Shown here: positions 22,215 to 28,293 of the stretch, piece after piece | How the letters are laid out: each line of letters opens with the position of its first letter | Position numbering within the stretch: position 1 is the first letter of the stretch | Source: Opitutia bacterium ISCC 52 | Lineage (GTDB): Bacteria > Verrucomicrobiota > Verrucomicrobiia > Opitutales > UBA2995 | DNA length: 64,000 bases | Direction: 5' to 3' | Assembly (NCBI GenBank): GCA_014529675.2 | Contig: CP076040.1 | Location: 4,491,501 to 4,555,500, forward strand | Notes under the pieces: generated by a model | What the model was told of the DNA's origin: nothing | Database searches by the model: none | Seen by the model: the letters and a program-made list of their open reading frames with translations, nothing else | Made by a program: the position numbers and the translations under genes

Positions 22215-23207
22215 ATGAATAAATGCCTCTTCGTCTCAAAACTATTTCTGTCAATCGGTCTCCTCGGTGTCACCACGTTGTCGTTTGCCAAAGGACACAA
22301 AGTCGTCACCGGCAATGGCCAGCATCGTTTCGAAATCAACACGCACTGGCAGTCTTTTTCTGACGGAAATGAAATGGGCTCTACCCATGGAGGAGTTGCA
22401 GTCGACAAAAACGGAAACGTCTATGTCACGACGGACAAGGAGCGAGGCATTGCCGTATTTTCATCCGGAGGCAAATTCCTGAGAAGCCTGGGTGAAGAAT
22501 ACTCCGGTTCCCACTCGTTGGAAATCCACGAGGAATATGGCGTGGAATACCTCTATGCCGCGCACAAGGCGATGGAACGTATCATCAAGCTAGACCTCCA
22601 AGGAAAACTGGTGATGGAAATCGGAAGCACGGACAAACAACCCATCCCCGAAACCTTAAAAGGCTTAACGGGAGTGACTGTAGGTCCTGACGGCCGCATT
22701 TATGCGGTAGTAGGCTACGGATCCAATCTCATCCACATTTTCAGCCCCAAGGGTAAACTTCTTAAAACCTTTGGCAGCAAAGGCGAAGGCCTTGAAGACA
22801 CCAAGACCTCCCATGGTGTGACGGTTGATTATCGCTACGAAACGCCACGCCTTTTAGTTGCTGATCGTGAAAACCGTCGCCTCAAACACTACGATCTCGA
22901 TGGAAATCTCATTGGAATTCACGCTCAGTTCCTGCGCCGTCCATGTTCAATCGACATTTATGGCGATTACGTTGCCGTTGCTGAGCTCCAAGGCCGCGTG
23001 ACTATTGTAAACAAAGAAGGCGTGCCCGTTGCCTTTTTAGGCGATAATCCCGACGAAGCACAATGGGCGGCATTTAGAACACCGCTACCAGACATTGCAG
23101 AAGGTATCTTTACCGCACCACACGGTCTCACCTACGACAAGGACGGCAATCTCTACGTTCAGGACTGGAACCAGACCGGCCGCGTCTCGTTTTTAAAGCG
23201 CCTATGA
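22215..23207 (+). CDS. Secreted NHL-repeat / six-bladed beta-propeller protein
   Basis: 330 residues. A signal peptide (about 25 residues, ending SFA) is followed by a chain of NHL-like propeller blades with repeated units such as GVAVDKNGNVYVTTD, GVTVGPDGRIYAVVG, SHGVTVDYRYETPRLLVADRENRR and GLTYDKDGNLYVQDWN. NHL propellers bind ligands or act as lyase-like scaffolds; no catalytic set is evident. Its place between two sulfatase genes suggests a role in handling sulfated glycan. Its 3' end overlaps the next sulfatase's 3' end by six bases. Confidence 0.8.
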   Translation: MNKCLFVSKLFLSIGLLGVTTLSFAKGHKVVTGNGQHRFEINTHWQSFSDGNEMGSTHGGVAVDKNGNVYVTTDKERGIAVFSSGGKFLRSLGEEYSGSHSLEIHEEYGVEYLYAAHKAMERIIKLDLQGKLVMEIGSTDKQPIPETLKGLTGVTVGPDGRIYAVVGYGSNLIHIFSPKGKLLKTFGSKGEGLEDTKTSHGVTVDYRYETPRLLVADRENRRLKHYDLDGNLIGIHAQFLRRPCSIDIYGDYVAVAELQGRVTIVNKEGVPVAFLGDNPDEAQWAAFRTPLPDIAEGIFTAPHGLTYDKDGNLYVQDWNQTGRVSFLKRL

Positions 23208-24965
23208 GTCGACTGGCCGCAAGGTCAGCAGCCTGAACTCCAGCGCCTGCTCCCCAGGTATCTCCGGGGCGGTCAGACTGATCACACCGTCGCCCTTCGG
23301 CAGGTCAATTTTTCCGATCACAACCGGTTTAAAATCTTTTTCGTAAGACTCTTGGCGAACGACTTTATCTTCAGCGGCCCCGATAATCGGTGGATCCCAG
23401 CCTTCGGTGATTTTTGCCTTTAAGACCGAGTCACCCATGCGAAGCTCGATGGTCGATCCCACATCTTTTTCCGGGCAGGTGTAGTAAAGCTCCACTTCGT
23501 AGGTGCCAGCCGTCAATACCTCCACATCCCACGTAATCGAGTCTCCTTCATCCGTCCAGTTAAGGAAATAGGAGCTATTCGGATACCGGTTGGAGCGAAT
23601 AATAGTGCCGTGCTCTATGCCATCACGCGCCGGCAGCTGCGTCATCGGAGCATCCGGATGACAAATCACAAACGGCCGTTCTTCTTCGCCAATTTGCGAA
23701 ACCACATCGTCCTTCCACTCGGCAGCGGCCTCACGCAGTCGCTTTGTAATATTAGAATACTGCTCTGTTACAGGTGTCCGTTGCTCCGGATCCGCAACGA
23801 TATCATATAACTCTCCGAGATTATCTAAACGAAATCGTTGGGTGCGCACGGAGATCTTGTCGCGCCAGTGGGTAAAGATCATGCGGTCAGGTGCGGGCGC
23901 GTAATCGCCAAGCAAAGCAGAGGAAATGTCCAAGCCGTCCAGCGGCTTAGCCGGTGTATAGTCGATGCCCGCCATGCTGGCGAGAGTGGGCAACAGATCA
24001 GTGACAGAGCTGATCGATTTAACCTGCTTACCTGCCTCAATCTTCGCAGGCCATTTAAAGAACAGGGGAGAGCGCACTCCGCCTTCATCCGTGGAACCTT
24101 TGCGGCCTTTCATGCCGCCGTTCCAGCGAACGCCATTCGGGCCGTTGTCACAGAAATAAATGAAAATGGTGTTATCAGTCGCATCCAGCTCTTCGAGCTT
24201 ATCTACCAGACGACCTACATTCCAATCGATATTCTCACACATAGCGAGCGCCGCACGGATGTGCTGAGGATCCTCCTTATTTGGTTCCCGGTTTTTCATC
24301 GGGTAATCGTAGCCATCGAACTTCTCCCAGAACTTTTCCGGTACCTGCATCGGTGAATGCGGGGTGTTGTAAGCCAGGTAAGTAAAAAATGGCTTCTCGG
24401 CCTTCACCTGCTCCTCCATGTAATCCATGGCGCGGGTCGTCAGGTCATCGATGACGAATCCATCACCACGGACAATCTCCCCGTTGTGCTCCAGTGGAAA
24501 ATCAAAGTAGTGACCCCAGTGCCCAGAACAAAATCCGTAGAACTCCTCAAATCCGCGACTATTGGGGTGGTAAGGATGCTGCATGCCATTGTGCCATTTT
24601 CCGAACATGCCCGTCGCGTAACCACCAGCCTTAAAAACTTCAGCGATTGTCTCTTCATCCAGATCCATCCGTTCCCCACCAGAACTGGTGGAGAAGACAC
24701 CACTGCGAGGGCTGTAGCGCCCAGTCAAAAACTCCGCTCGGGTTGGCGAACACACCGGACACACATAAAATCGATCAAAGGACGCACCGGCCTCGGAAAG
24801 ACGGTCAATATTGGGCGTACTGAGGTTGGTATTCCCATGCACACTGAGGTCACCCCAACCTTGGTCGTCGGTCATAATGATGACGATGTTGGGAGGCGAA
24901 TCGGCAGCAAAAGCGGCAAAAGGAATCAGTGAAAGAAGACTTAGAGTAAGAACTTTTCTGAGCAT
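23202..24965 (-). CDS. Secreted S1-family sulfatase with C-terminal beta-sandwich domain
   Basis: Exported sulfatase. The ATG at 24965 gives a clear signal peptide (MLRKVLTLSLLSLIPFAAFAA); the frame extends 15 codons further to 25010, but that start would bury the signal. The metal site DDQGWGD and formylglycine motif CSPTR (Cys 72) are present, then GKWHNGM and FCDNGPNG. After the catalytic part (to about residue 450) there is a domain with YFLNWTDEGDSITWDVEV and GTYEVELYYTC, typical of carbohydrate-binding-like beta-sandwiches that hold the enzyme on its polymer. 587 residues. Confidence 0.92.
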   Translation of the reverse strand: MLRKVLTLSLLSLIPFAAFAADSPPNIVIIMTDDQGWGDLSVHGNTNLSTPNIDRLSEAGASFDRFYVCPVCSPTRAEFLTGRYSPRSGVFSTSSGGERMDLDEETIAEVFKAGGYATGMFGKWHNGMQHPYHPNSRGFEEFYGFCSGHWGHYFDFPLEHNGEIVRGDGFVIDDLTTRAMDYMEEQVKAEKPFFTYLAYNTPHSPMQVPEKFWEKFDGYDYPMKNREPNKEDPQHIRAALAMCENIDWNVGRLVDKLEELDATDNTIFIYFCDNGPNGVRWNGGMKGRKGSTDEGGVRSPLFFKWPAKIEAGKQVKSISSVTDLLPTLASMAGIDYTPAKPLDGLDISSALLGDYAPAPDRMIFTHWRDKISVRTQRFRLDNLGELYDIVADPEQRTPVTEQYSNITKRLREAAAEWKDDVVSQIGEEERPFVICHPDAPMTQLPARDGIEHGTIIRSNRYPNSSYFLNWTDEGDSITWDVEVLTAGTYEVELYYTCPEKDVGSTIELRMGDSVLKAKITEGWDPPIIGAAEDKVVRQESYEKDFKPVVIGKIDLPKGDGVISLTAPEIPGEQALEFRLLTLRPVDS

Positions 24966-25023
24966 AGGAATGGAAGGATAGAAAGGAGTGAAAGGGTGGC
25001 AAGAGGACATTCGCTCTGTCTCA

Positions 25024-25092
25024 GTAGGAGGTAGCTTGCTGCCGAATCGAACTTATTTGGTGTCTGAGACCGGCAGCAAGCTACCTCCTGCT
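25024..25092. repeat. REPIN-like inverted repeat pair A
   Basis: Two inverted copies of a 22-base unit: GTAGGAGGTAGCTTGCTGCCGA at 25024-25045 is described by its parts, GTAG head plus the palindrome GGTAGC-TT-GCTGCC; the partner at 25071-25092 is its near-perfect reverse complement. The GTAG head in front of an imperfect palindrome is the hallmark of REP sequences mobilised by RAYT (TnpA-REP) proteins. The same unit occurs at 28227-28293. No RAYT gene is in the window. Confidence 0.75.
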
Positions 25093-25396
25093 ATGGGATA
25101 AATTGTCAAGGACGAGATGACTGTATTGTTTGTTACATTCAATGGTTTGTGTTTAATGGGTTGGTATTTAATTGTTTGCGTCTTCTCAGCGGTCCTGGTC
25201 ATGAGTTGATGACCGGTAAAACCTGCTATCCGTGTCCTGTTTAGGGATCACACTATGACTTATACTAGCGTCATCTTTTGCTGAAGAAGTGAAGCTGCCC
25301 CATCTACAAAAAGCGTCTCTTGATTGGGACAAGGAGGTTAGCGGGCACACTGCGCAAATAATCTTCTGTTAGTTCTAAAGCTTCACATAGGTGTTC
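25093..25396. other. Non-coding region downstream of the IS110-family transposase
   Basis: About 300 bases without a gene. It holds a stem-loop with arms GGTCAT/ATGACC near 25198-25215. It also holds one arm of an imperfect direct repeat (25301-25327, CATCTACAAA...CTCTTGAT) that recurs at 26543-26568, and TTGATTGG (25320-25327), whose inverse CCAATCAA is at 26512-26519. In IS1111-group members of the IS110 family the bridge RNA lies on this side of the transposase, so this region may encode it. The exact end of the element is unresolved. Confidence 0.45.
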
Positions 25397-26568
25397 TTAG
25401 GATTGGAGGAGTTTCATGCTTAGTCCGATATCCTCGGGTTTTACCCGACCGGTTCTGACTCGCCACCAGTCCACGGCAAACTGCCGGGCGATGGCCACGA
25501 CGATTTTCTTTTTACTGGACCGGGTCAGTTTGGCGTTAAGTAGTTGCTCTCGCCACTTTTGCACCCCTCGGTAGTCACCGTTCCAACGGATCAGCAGCCA
25601 GGTGCATTCGATAAGCATGTGGCGTAGCCGCGGGTTGCCGTGTTTGGTAATGGATCCTTGCATACGTCGGTTGGCACTGGTGCTTTCACTCGGGCACAGT
25701 CCCGTGTAGCCACCGACTTGCTTGCGCGTATCAAAGCGTCTCCAGTCGCCCACTTCGCGTTCGGTTTGCTGGAACAGTACCGTTCCCATGCCTTGGGGAA
25801 GAGCGGTTGTTTCCATTTCCTGGAGTTGCTGTGCCACCTGCTGGATCTGTTCGTTGATCACCAGGATAATGGCACGTATGGGCTGGAGGAGTTTTACCAG
25901 ATGAGTGCTCAGAGTGTGTGTTAACCCCTCCCACTTCTTCGGTGCCCACCAGATCCCTTTTAGTGAGACTCCGTAGTAAAGAGCATGGCTGCGTCCACGG
26001 TTGGTGTTGCGACTGCGCTCCTTGATCAGGCATTGGCGCTGACGCGTTATACTGCGTAGTTGTTCTTCCTGTTCGCTAGGAACTCTTACCACGCTGAAGC
26101 TGCGGTCATTGCCACGCAGATAACCGTCCAGCGCTAAGGCCATCTGAGTGGCATCGCGGCCATCGGTCTTTACTCCTTTGTGGTGTTCATCCCAATTGAT
26201 CGGGCAGATCACATGATTGATCACTCCGAGCGCTTCGAGTTTGCGGTGCAGCACATAGCCAAACGCTCCAGCTTCGTAGCAACTGTAGAGACTCTGGCAA
26301 CGTGCTTTCAAAGCTTCTAACCAAATGAGAAACTGATCAGGTTTAAAACTGCGCGAGCGTTCAGGCACAGAACTGTCGATCTTCTGAACGACCACATACT
26401 TGTCTTTGTGCACGTCGATACCGAGCTTGATTACTTCGCCAAGGAAGCTAGCGTTATTGTCAGATGATGTGGGAGTTGTTGTTATAGTTTTCATACACTT
26501 ATCAGGATCGCCAATCAACGGCCCCTGACAACGCTCCCATGTCATCTACAAATAAATCCCTCTTGATA
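25301..26568 (-). mobile_element. IS110-family insertion sequence, approximate limits
   Basis: The limits are set by an imperfect direct repeat of about 25 bases flanking the transposase gene (25301-25327 and 26543-26568), with subterminal inverted TTGATTGG/CCAATCAA just inside. The resulting length, about 1.27 kb, suits the family. Members of this family lack classical terminal inverted repeats, so the ends could extend further, especially toward 25093. Confidence 0.5.
25397..26494 (-). CDS. IS110-family transposase (DEDD recombinase)
   Basis: Site-specific DEDD transposase guided by a bridge RNA. The N-terminal RuvC-like DEDD domain has D27 (GIDVHKDKYVV), E in SCYEAGAFGY and the paired D in VKTDGRDATQ. 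The C-terminal Transposase_20 domain has VGGYTGLCPSE and GSITKHGNPRLRHMLIE with the serine expected for catalysis. It appears intact (366 residues from the ATG at 26494; the frame extends 17 codons further). It is inserted between two sulfatase genes and lies antiparallel to the third sulfatase. Confidence 0.93.
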   Translation of the reverse strand: MKTITTTPTSSDNNASFLGEVIKLGIDVHKDKYVVVQKIDSSVPERSRSFKPDQFLIWLEALKARCQSLYSCYEAGAFGYVLHRKLEALGVINHVICPINWDEHHKGVKTDGRDATQMALALDGYLRGNDRSFSVVRVPSEQEEQLRSITRQRQCLIKERSRNTNRGRSHALYYGVSLKGIWWAPKKWEGLTHTLSTHLVKLLQPIRAIILVINEQIQQVAQQLQEMETTALPQGMGTVLFQQTEREVGDWRRFDTRKQVGGYTGLCPSESTSANRRMQGSITKHGNPRLRHMLIECTWLLIRWNGDYRGVQKWREQLLNAKLTRSSKKKIVVAIARQFAVDWWRVRTGRVKPEDIGLSMKLLQS

Positions 26569-26608
26569 GTCCGTTCATTTACGAATTCACTCATCCCCCT
26601 ATTACTCT

Positions 26609-28168
26609 ATGAAACTACTAAGCTTCTTCTTTCTATTCATTTCCCTCGGGGCATTCTCATTCGGCCAAAATAAGGATCAACCGAACGTTCTCTTCATTCT
26701 CGCCGACGATTTGGGCAAACGAGACCTCAGCGTTGAGGGTAGCACCTTTTACGAGAGTCCCAATATTGATCGCATTGCCAACGAAGGTGTGCGGTTCACC
26801 AACGGCTACGCCACCTGCCAAGTGTGCAGCCCGTCACGCGCCAGCATCATGACCGGTAAATACCCGGCACGCATCGACATCACCGAATGGATTGGTGCCG
26901 CCATGGGTGAGGAGTGGAAACGGAACACCCCCATGCTCCCAGCCATCTATAACCACAACCTGGACCACAATGACACAACATTGGCAGAGGCATTTAAAGC
27001 TGCCGGTTACACCACCTTCTTTGCTGGCAAATGGCACTTAGGCAAAGAGGGATCCCATCCAGATGATCATGGATTCGATATAAATATCGGTGGTCATCAT
27101 CGGGGCTCACCTCCCGGTGGATTCTTTTCGCCCTACACAAACCCACGCATGGAAAGCGGTCCCGTCGGTGAATATCTGCCCTTTCGATTAGCAGATGAAA
27201 CCGAACAGTTCATCCGCGAACACAAGGACGAACCCTTTCTGGCCTATCTCTCCTTTTACATGGTGCATGGACCTCTTCAAACCACTAAGGAGCTCTGGGA
27301 AAAATATCGTGTGAAAGCCTTAACCCAACCGAAACCTACGGAGCGCTTCCTGATCGATCGCACTTCACCGGTTCGCCAGGTCCAGGATCATCCCATATAC
27401 GGCGGCATGGTCGAAGCGATGGACTCAGCCGTCGGGCAGGTGCTCGACACACTCGACGAACTGGGATTGGCCGAGAATACGATCGTCGTATTTACCTCCG
27501 ATAACGGTGGCGTTTCTGCTGGCGACGGAAAGGCAACTTCCAACCTGCCTTATAGAGGCGGCAAGGGCCGCCAGTGGGAAGGTGGCATTCGTGAGCCCTA
27601 TTTCATCAAGTGGCCCGGAAGCCCGGTCAATGGTTTGACCATCGACACACCGGTTACCGGTACCGACTTTTTCCCTACACTACTGGATTTGGCGGGTATC
27701 CCACTCATGCCGGAACAGCACATGGATGGAGTAAGCCTTATGCCGCTTTTAAATGGAGAAGGAATCGAAGAACGTCCATTGTTTTGGCACTACCCCCACT
27801 ACAGCAATCAGCGAGGAGATCCTTCCACCATCATTCGGGAAGGATTCTGGAAGTTGATTTTCTACCACGAAGATCGCCGCATCGAACTCTACCACCTGGA
27901 GAATGATCCAGGTGAACATGTTGATTTGGCAGGCAACTACCCCGACTTGGAAAAAGAACTTCTGGACAAGCTACTCGCCTGGACCGAGGAAGTAGATGCG
28001 AAGTTTCCTGCTCCCAATCCCAATTTCAGCAGTCAACTTTTTGAAGCTGAACGGCGACAAACGCGCCTGGTAGACAAACCTACTCTCGAGAAACAACACG
28101 CAGAAGTACTCGAACCGGATTGGTCACCTCCAAACGGATGGTGGGAAGAGACAGGCGTTGCCCGGTAA
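26609..28168 (+). CDS. Secreted S1-family sulfatase
   Basis: Exported sulfatase with a 19-residue signal peptide (FFFLFISLGAFSFG). The metal site is DDLGKRD and the formylglycine motif CSPSR carries Cys 73; AGKWHLGKEG and FTSDNGGVS follow. 519 residues. Its organisation, with the LPYRGGKGRQWEGGIREP segment, is typical of polysaccharide-active S1 enzymes; the sulfate position attacked cannot be read. A REPIN-like repeat lies about 60 bases after the stop. Confidence 0.93.
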   Translation: MKLLSFFFLFISLGAFSFGQNKDQPNVLFILADDLGKRDLSVEGSTFYESPNIDRIANEGVRFTNGYATCQVCSPSRASIMTGKYPARIDITEWIGAAMGEEWKRNTPMLPAIYNHNLDHNDTTLAEAFKAAGYTTFFAGKWHLGKEGSHPDDHGFDINIGGHHRGSPPGGFFSPYTNPRMESGPVGEYLPFRLADETEQFIREHKDEPFLAYLSFYMVHGPLQTTKELWEKYRVKALTQPKPTERFLIDRTSPVRQVQDHPIYGGMVEAMDSAVGQVLDTLDELGLAENTIVVFTSDNGGVSAGDGKATSNLPYRGGKGRQWEGGIREPYFIKWPGSPVNGLTIDTPVTGTDFFPTLLDLAGIPLMPEQHMDGVSLMPLLNGEGIEERPLFWHYPHYSNQRGDPSTIIREGFWKLIFYHEDRRIELYHLENDPGEHVDLAGNYPDLEKELLDKLLAWTEEVDAKFPAPNPNFSSQLFEAERRQTRLVDKPTLEKQHAEVLEPDWSPPNGWWEETGVAR

Positions 28169-28226
28169 TCGCGGCTATGTGATCTCCAAAAGATCTTGAG
28201 TAACAACTCCTTTAACTCTGACCCAT

Positions 28227-28293
28227 TCGGCAGCAAGCTACCTCCTACAGAGGGCGAAACGAAACTCAACTGTAGGAGGTAGCTTGCTGCCGA
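28227..28293. repeat. REPIN-like inverted repeat pair B
   Basis: The same REP unit as at 25024-25092, in opposite arrangement: the reverse complement at 28227-28248 and the direct unit at 28272-28293, so the GTAG heads face each other across a spacer of about 23 bases. The two copies match perfectly over at least 22 bases. It lies in the gap between the convergent sulfatase and SDR genes and could also act as a bidirectional terminator-like hairpin. Confidence 0.78.

What the first reader, a model, noticed from the sequence alone, without database searches (positions are those of the whole stretch)
25024..28293. Two REPIN-like pairs built from the same GTAG-headed palindrome
The 22-base unit (GTAG head, GGTAGC-TT-GCTGCC palindrome) is found four times as two inverted pairs, in opposite head orientations, on each side of the IS110/sulfatase stretch. 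The architecture is that of REP/REPIN elements moved by RAYT proteins, best described in gamma-proteobacteria; here it would be in a Verrucomicrobiota-like genome with no RAYT in the window.
Basis: partly seen in the sequence, partly recalled or inferred. Interest (0 to 1): 0.55.

Follow-up and report, generated by a model that had tools for sequence, protein, structure and literature searches.

The report
Transposase-linked DNA hairpin repeats (REPINs)
Two pairs of short hairpin repeats belong to a scattered population of small mobile repeats of a kind already known in other bacteria and in this phylum, and one pair has been split by a separate mobile element that seems to aim at such repeats with a guide RNA.

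Summary
Four copies of a GTAG-headed 22-mer form one head-out (25024-25091) and one head-in (28227-28293) inverted pair. The genome (4.8 Mb, one contig; order Opitutales, by a same-genus record) holds 39 copies at up to 3 mismatches against 0 in the reversed control, and 91 units of a wider pattern against 1. Of 30 pairs, 24 have spacers of 22-25 bp; 79 of 90 units lie outside ORFs in loci that are 88% coding. Two RAYT genes occur, both flanked by such units; one passes NCBI's REP-transposase cut-off. Both look impaired (Cys for the catalytic Tyr; an upstream in-frame TAG). The REPIN reading is supported but not new in kind: GTAG repeats in Opitutus terrae are in print. Additions: (1) the IS110-family element sits inside the head of pair 1; its ends, downstream noncoding region and two guide-like 7-mers fit an IS1111-type element aimed at the repeat head (one copy only); (2) between the two sulfatase genes own, G288 and G290 carry head-out pairs of three different repeat types at nearly the same place; (3) several palindromes carry a similar 30-60 nt insert at their centre, unexplained.

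The parts
25024..25045 (+). REP unit, type A, left half of head-out (HH) pair 1
   Evidence: exact 22-mer
25070..25091 (-). REP unit, right half of pair 1; its head is split: repeat sequence ends at 25089 and resumes (ACA) at 26548
25090..26547 (-). IS1111-type insertion sequence (1458 bp) inside the REP head; terminal extensions 3 bp (25090-25092) and 7 bp (26541-26547)
   Evidence: junctions; the two sulfatase genes are adjacent without it in G288, G290 and G291
25397..26545 (-). IS110-family transposase gene (382 aa ORF; the NCBIfam match starts at residue 41, so the true start is probably internal)
   Evidence: NF033542 159 bits, cut-off 140; PF02371, PF01548
25093..25107 (+). subterminal inverted repeat, noncoding side (ATGGGATAAATTGTC)
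   Evidence: by eye
26527..26540 (-). subterminal inverted repeat, transposase 5' side (ATGGGAGCGTTGTC)
   Evidence: by eye
25304..25310 (-). candidate seekRNA guide to one half of the target (CTACAAA on + strand)
25332..25338 (-). candidate seekRNA guide to the REP half of the target (AGGAGGT on + strand)
   Evidence: 10 of 5000 shuffles pass the relaxed test
28227..28248 (-). REP unit, type A, left half of head-in (TT) pair 2
   Evidence: exact 22-mer
28272..28293 (+). REP unit, type A, right half of pair 2
   Evidence: exact 22-mer
23202..25010 (-). sulfatase gene left of pair 1
   Evidence: PF00884 192 bits
26609..28168 (+). sulfatase gene between the IS and pair 2
   Evidence: PF00884 202 bits
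28326..29096 (-). short-chain dehydrogenase gene whose 3' end faces pair 2
   Evidence: PF13561 147 bits

Best explanation
The four units are two REPINs: inverted pairs of GTAG-headed REP palindromes that form hairpins in single-stranded DNA and were spread by a RAYT (Y1 HUH endonuclease). Shown by sequence: unit structure, genome-wide copies, fixed pair spacing, placement outside ORFs, RAYT genes flanked by the same units, differences between species at orthologous places. Inferred: that RAYT cuts beside the hairpin after reading GTAG and copies the pair elsewhere. The local RAYTs look impaired, so the population may no longer be spreading. Later an IS1111-type element inserted into the head of pair 1's right unit, probably guided by a seekRNA from its downstream noncoding region whose two guides match the two halves of the target (inferred; about 0.7 to 0.8).
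For: 39 copies vs 0 control; wider pattern 91 vs 1 in own and 260 vs 1 in sister G288. In 455,949 bp of own loci, all chosen for REPs except the window, 101 units vs 1 reversed control, 19 HH and 11 TT pairs, 24 of 30 with spacers of 22-25 bp. 79 of 90 units outside ORFs in loci that are 88.4% coding; sites convergent 13, divergent 2, tandem 40 against neighbouring ORFs 46/41/195. RAYTs: L032 protein 82.4 bits for NF047646 (cut-off 80), L034 63.7 (below); PDB 4er8 TnpA-REP E 1.9e-4; head-in REP pairs flank L034, L123 and L124 on both sides; REPs flank many relatives' RAYTs. In G288 eight TT pairs at different loci share a near-identical 22-bp spacer, counting both orientations, as expected if the pair moves as a unit. 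Pair 2 is present at the matching place in G291; no type A pair is seen there in G288, G289, G290, G292. IS: joined flanks restore the REP head; 3-bp and 7-bp extensions, subterminal repeats, downstream NCR and guide order fit IS1111 as described in PMC11187229.
Against: L034's catalytic Tyr column holds Cys; L032 has a TAG upstream of its TTG start, so no clearly intact RAYT was seen. L034 is below NCBI's curated cut-off. I saw no RAYT flanked by types B, C, D or F in this genome among the five PF01797 hits. Next to pair 2's place G288, G289 and G292 carry repeats of other types in the same gap at other distances, so 'absent' means the type A pair only. No excision or transposition was observed. 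For the IS: one copy in the genome; seven related loci from six other genomes show no REP head beside them in the flanks held, one of them cut off by a contig end; folds of the noncoding region are no better than shuffles (z -0.06 and 0.58); Rfam has no match above a gathering score.
Confidence: 0.92

Rival explanations
1. The units are kept for a host role (terminators or mRNA-end stabilisers, binding sites) and are not mobile; pairing is a by-product of terminator hairpins between genes.
For: Mostly outside ORFs and rare between divergent genes; a head-out pair of some type is kept between the divergent sulfatases in own, G288 and G290.
Against: Copies with near-identical spacers at different loci in G288, RAYTs flanked by the same units, differences between species. 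It does not exclude a secondary host role.
Confidence: 0.05
2. The pairs are miniature remnants of a DDE insertion sequence or of the IS110 element beside them.
For: An IS110-family gene lies between the two pairs.
Against: The IS ends (ATGGGA..TTGTC) do not resemble the REP unit; in G288 and G290 a pair lies between the sulfatases without the IS; the IS is single-copy while the units number about 100.
Confidence: 0.02
3. The IS sits in the REP head by chance, not through a guide RNA.
For: Only one copy, no conserved fold, relatives not seen in REPs.
Against: About 100 units of 22 bp are about 0.05% of the genome (arithmetic); both halves of the target recur as 7-mers in the expected senses and order, which 10 of 5000 shuffles match.
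Confidence: 0.2

Closest known systems
GTAG REP families (GTAG-1 type) of Di Nocera et al. 2013 and Pseudomonas REPs of Nunvar et al. 2013
   Same: GTAG head, two unpaired bases, short stem with TT-type loop, conserved bases at the far end; HH and TT dimers; cognate RAYT. One own unit, GTAGGAGCAAGCTTGCTCGCGA, differs by one base from class PF18 (GTAGGAGCGAGCyyGCTCGCGA).
   Different: Stem letters of most types are their own; copies are tens per type; host is Opitutales.
REPINs of Pseudomonas fluorescens SBW25 (Bertels and Rainey 2011)
   Same: Inverted doublets with conserved ends, less conserved spacer, extragenic, near RAYT genes (passages).
   Different: Both head-out and head-in pairs with similar spacing; local RAYTs look impaired; no excision data.
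ISPa11 (IS1111 family) in Pseudomonas REPs; IS621 in E. coli REPs
   Same: IS110/IS1111 transposase, insertion that splits a REP; downstream noncoding region and subterminal repeats for the IS1111 type (passages).
   Different: Other insertion point in the unit (GT|AGGAG), one copy, another phylum; RNA not shown.
Opitutus terrae GTAG repeats (Di Nocera 2013)
   Same: Same phylum, several GTAG families in one genome.
   Different: O. terrae families named in the sections read are GTAG-17, -19 and -20; whether any equals the types here could not be checked because Figure 1 is not held.

Membership tests
GTAG REP | short palindrome tagged at one end by GTAG | tested here: met
GTAG REP | high copy, mostly intergenic | tested here: met
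   91 units; 79 of the 90 lying in fetched loci are outside ORFs
REPIN | over-represented inverted doublets with restricted spacing | tested here: met
   30 pairs, 24 of them with spacers of 22-25 bp; heads-based search HH 33 vs 2 and TT 23 vs 3 in reversed control
REPIN | doublet moves as a unit | tested here: inconclusive
   shared spacers at different loci in G288 and differences between species; no movement observed
RAYT | Y1/HUH domain related to TnpA-REP | tested here: met
   PF01797 above cut-off for both, NF047646 above cut-off for L032 only, 4er8 match
RAYT | gene flanked by its REPs | tested here: met
RAYT | catalytic HUH and Tyr present | tested here: inconclusive
   L032 has both but an upstream TAG; L034 has HUH and Cys in the Tyr column
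RAYT | single-strand REP cleavage | not testable with these tools
   needs protein
IS1111 | IS110-type DEDD transposase | tested here: met
   NF033542 159 bits, cut-off 140; PF01548
IS1111 | subterminal inverted repeats with 7-bp and 3-bp extensions, noncoding region downstream | tested here: met
   against PMC11187229 passages; the repeats match imperfectly (ATGGGA and TTGTC with unlike middle)
IS1111 | seekRNA with top-strand complement before bottom-strand match | tested here: inconclusive
   7-mers in that order; RNA itself not seen

The most novel reading that the evidence does not exclude
In this genus REPIN positions behave as fixed addresses whose occupant changes: the spot between the divergent sulfatases holds head-out pairs of type A, F and D in three species, and one further spot holds type C in one species and type F in another at nearly the same base. 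Repeats would then be exchanged at standing sites (by RAYT copying into existing REP hairpins, by recombination, or by strong site choice) rather than only gained and lost. A second, separate part: a small element of 30-60 nt inserts at the centre of REP and other palindromes. (Lowered from 0.20 on checking: a G292 pair first counted at the sulfatase spot proved to be the orthologue of another own pair.)
Probability: 0.17. Interest if true: 0.6.

Novelty: new member of a known kind. Interest (0 to 1): 0.38.

Why it matters
It extends the Pseudomonas-like GTAG-1 repeat design, with matching RAYTs, to Opitutales genomes that are close enough to compare sites, types and transposase decay. It also offers a cross-phylum parallel in which an IS110/IS1111 element appears aimed at REP heads, so the guide-RNA idea can be tested on a new element. 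If site re-use by different repeat types holds up, it bears on how REP populations change type, whose mechanism Nunvar et al. left open.

Tried and rejected
Composite element around IS110 and sulfatase: rejected, G288, G290 and G291 have the sulfatases side by side without the IS. Recent transfer of the RAYT from Gammaproteobacteria: not supported; the genus RAYTs form their own clade (97/96) apart from five proteobacterial ones (99/99), deeper order unresolved; L131 of the same genus falls outside that clade on a long branch; 5 of 24 ORFs recovered were left out of the 19-row tree. RNA fold of the IS noncoding region: no signal. Rfam: two weak matches, both far below gathering score; STnc400 at 33.8 of 80 bits (E 0.00077) covers pair 1 and was taken as chance or hairpin likeness. 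Site sharing between own and G288: of 8 own sites for which I read homologous flanks on both sides, a REP lies in the same gap in 5 (window 25024, L239, L183, L216, L217:4008) or in 6 if window 28227 is counted (G288 has an extra gene and a type F pair in that gap); L237 and L217:2928 are not shared. With 61 of 235 gaps in the fetched G288 loci holding a REP the chance is 0.03 or 0.005 (an earlier count of 5 of 7, 0.015, left out window 28227). L229:14473 was dropped because its second flank is the repeat's own insert; in L217:4008 the positions within the gap differ. The G288 REP listing was cut at about 100 of 260 units, so the comparison covers under half of that genome's units. G292: I first took its type F pair beside the right-hand sulfatase as a fourth occupant of the spot; one search shows that pair and its left neighbour (545 bp, 89%) are the orthologue of own 1017554 (L222), so it was withdrawn. 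Insert search by strict palindrome arms gave 3 vs 1 control in own and 3 vs 1 in G288, no signal; the insert's own sequence gave 7 vs 0 (pattern b) and 26 vs 2 (some of the 26 plainly unrelated). Pattern a had 32 control hits and is uninformative alone.
Full report
Observation. The window is G000:C1:4491501-4555500 of a 4,815,747-bp single-contig genome. The four units are present as described. In Di Nocera's terms pair 1 is head-head (GTAG outside) and pair 2 tail-tail (GTAG inside). Three units are exact; the fourth differs at two places near its ends.

Genome-wide. With up to 3 mismatches the 22-mer occurs 39 times against 0 for the reversed pattern. A wider pattern, GTAGGAGNNNNNTTN{5,6}CGA, occurs 91 times against 1, and 260 against 1 in the sister genome G288. 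Types seen include A (GGTAGC-TT-GCTGCC), B (GCAAAC-TT-GTTCGC), C (GCAAAT-TT-ATTCGC), D (GCTGCT-TT-AGCTGC), E (GGGGCC-TT-GGTCCC) and a 23-mer group F such as GGGGGTTTATCCCCC; the letters A to F are my labels. In 455,949 bp of own loci, all but the window chosen for holding REPs, a scanner found 101 units (1 in the reversed control), 19 HH and 11 TT pairs; 24 of the 30 have spacers of 22-25 bp, the others 16, 17, 27, 38, 87 and 124. Searching by heads alone gave HH 33 (control 2) and TT 23 (control 3) in own loci, and 39 (3) and 21 (3) in G288 loci. Of 90 units in these loci 79 lie outside ORFs although 88.4% of the loci is coding; of 64 sites 13 are convergent, 2 divergent, 40 tandem, 8 in ORFs and 1 unclassed, against neighbouring ORF pairs 46/41/195. 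ORFs here are mechanical, not annotated genes; pair 1 counts as tandem there because of the IS.

RAYT. PF01797 has five hits in the genome, four above cut-off. Two are RAYT-like and flanked by REPs. L034 (3665271-3665804 -, 177 aa) has an E(-)/A(+) head-in pair on each side; the A unit of one pair carries an insert. L032 (3698477-3698953 -, 158 aa) has an A-like unit at its 3' end and a GTAGGAGAGGAGCTTGCTCCCGA unit at its 5' side (read by eye). They are 52% identical. L032 reaches 82.4 bits for NCBI's REP-associated tyrosine transposase (cut-off 80), L034 63.7. The profile of both matches TnpA-REP of PDB 4er8. The HUH motif is kept in both; in the catalytic Tyr column L032 has Y, L034 has C. 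L032 has an in-frame TAG before its TTG start, where the G292 copy is open for 190 aa. So the local RAYTs may be dead or weak. Sister G288 has RAYTs with Tyr (L123, L128, L131); L131 is flanked by F units, L123 by A-like and E-like head-in pairs on both sides. G290, with no RAYT match, has only two non-palindromic hits to the CTTG pattern but carries a type D pair. In the phylum 116 of 288 genomes, own included, have a match to the RAYT at E 1e-3, and 17 of 387 have the GTAGGAG..CTTG..CGA repeat: own, 12 of the same order and 4 others with one hit each. Of nine other same-order genomes with that repeat that were in both samples, eight have a RAYT match, G283 does not; the base rate in the order is 23 of 42 (my tally from the two lists). 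The taxonomic name comes: G292's RAYT equals that of CALJGU010000254.1, an uncultured Opitutales bacterium (protein identity seen).

The IS. In G288, G290 and G291 the two sulfatase genes are neighbours without it. Its left flank ends ...GCTACCTCCT at 25089 and the right flank resumes ACAAATAAATCCC at 26548; joined they restore the head TGTAGGAGG on the minus strand. Beyond subterminal repeats (ATGGGATAAATTGTC / ATGGGAGCGTTGTC) lie 3 bp on the noncoding side and 7 bp on the transposase side, and the long noncoding region is downstream of the gene. These are the features given for IS1111 elements in PMC11187229 (passages). In the noncoding region the 7-mers AGGAGGT (25332) and CTACAAA (25304) match the two target halves, one complementary to each strand, in the order that paper gives for IS1111 seekRNAs; 10 of 5000 shuffles pass the same relaxed test. 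Donor-like matches also occur (CTGCTAT 25223; GATGAC 25208) but were not tested for chance. Against it: one copy, no fold signal, and seven related loci from six other genomes without a REP head beside them in the flanks held; the one GTAGGAG there (L277) is no palindrome, and L278 is cut by a contig end. Precedents: ISPa11, ISPpu9, ISPpu10 and IS621 in REPs (PMC1525189 passages).

Sites between species. Between the two divergent sulfatase genes own has a type A head-out pair, G288 type F, G290 type D, G291 none; from a shared GGCAAG to the GTAG are 26, 29 and 26 nt. G292 has a type F unit 32 nt from the GGCAAG of the left-hand sulfatase, where its contig C170 ends, so the spot is not seen whole. 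The right-hand sulfatase of G292 lies on another contig (C246) beside a full type F pair; that pair and the 545 bp left of it are the orthologue of own 1017554 (89%). So the G292 assembly joins two neighbourhoods at an F pair: a rearrangement by recombination between two F REPINs, or a misassembly at a repeat; I cannot tell. Near pair 2's place, G291 has a type A pair at the matching position; G288 has a type F pair about 240 bp, G289 a type B pair about 160 bp and G292 a type F-like unit about 100 bp from the dehydrogenase end; G290 shows none in its short gap. At L229:166 own has type C and G288 type F in the same orientation at nearly the same base, one flank only; L227:5918 (D against F) is similar but less exact. 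Other shared sites keep their type: L239 (B), L183 (F), L216 (F), L229:14473 (F, with a shared insert). Independent insertion at preferred spots is not excluded. Nunvar et al. describe class switching at RAYT flanks (orthoswitch) and call its mechanism speculative (abstract, three sections and passages read); in those parts I saw no statement on class change at ordinary REP sites.

What is known. Di Nocera et al. 2013 (abstract, four results sections and passages read) report GTAG repeats in Opitutus terrae and the PVC group, HH and TT dimers and REPtrons. In my search for REPIN, RAYT and Verrucomicrobi it was the only paper among the 20 listed of 111 with all three terms; RAYT with Opitut gave four papers that look unrelated by their listing. 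The library lacks most subscription papers, so absence from print is not shown. Mechanism of RAYT cutting is from PMC8266576 passages: CT cleavage beside the REP, GTAG needed in E. coli. Hence: a new member of a known kind, with a likely IS1111/REP relation as the best addition and site re-use as an open lead.

Noticed in passing
L202:3056, L216:2928, L229:128 and 14531, L232:2829, L234:1621, L196:12432, L213:2951, L239:2967, L222:4911 (own); L244:3113, L245:12758, L259:6324, L266:2923 (G288); positions of the insert's CGGTA end as printed: Several REP and other palindromes carry a similar insert of roughly 30-60 nt at their centre, with ends like GTTATTC...CTCGGTA and a middle like CGCTTCGCTTGTAGATGTGTC; 26 hits vs 2 in the reversed control, some of the 26 unrelated. 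One is shared at an orthologous site with a stem change on both sides.
   Followed up: partly
G292 contigs C246 (L120) and C170 (L121); own L222 (1017554) and window 25024: In G292 the left neighbour of own L222, its type F pair and then the window's right-hand sulfatase are joined on one contig, while the left-hand sulfatase's contig ends in a type F unit: REPIN-bounded rearrangement or misassembly.
   Followed up: partly
L188:1519, L231:5501 and, in G288, G289, G290, the gap next to the dehydrogenase gene: Another palindrome family of the form GTAGGG(C)AGAGCTTCCAGCTCTGCC seems to occur beside these repeats (by eye).
   Followed up: no
L031:900-1900 and L035:1300-2000 (own genome): Two further Y1 transposase genes or remnants lie among other inverted repeats (acaggcatcttgcctgt; cgacgctgtatccagcgtcg), perhaps separate REP/RAYT families (by eye).
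   Followed up: no
L051 (G155, same order): A RAYT flanked by GTGGGAGCGAGCTTGCTCGCGA, the same letters as Pseudomonas class PF8 without its last T.
   Followed up: partly
G288, G289, G291, G292 between sulfatase and dehydrogenase genes: An extra ORF of 444 to 507 codons lies where own and G290 have only a short gap.
   Followed up: no
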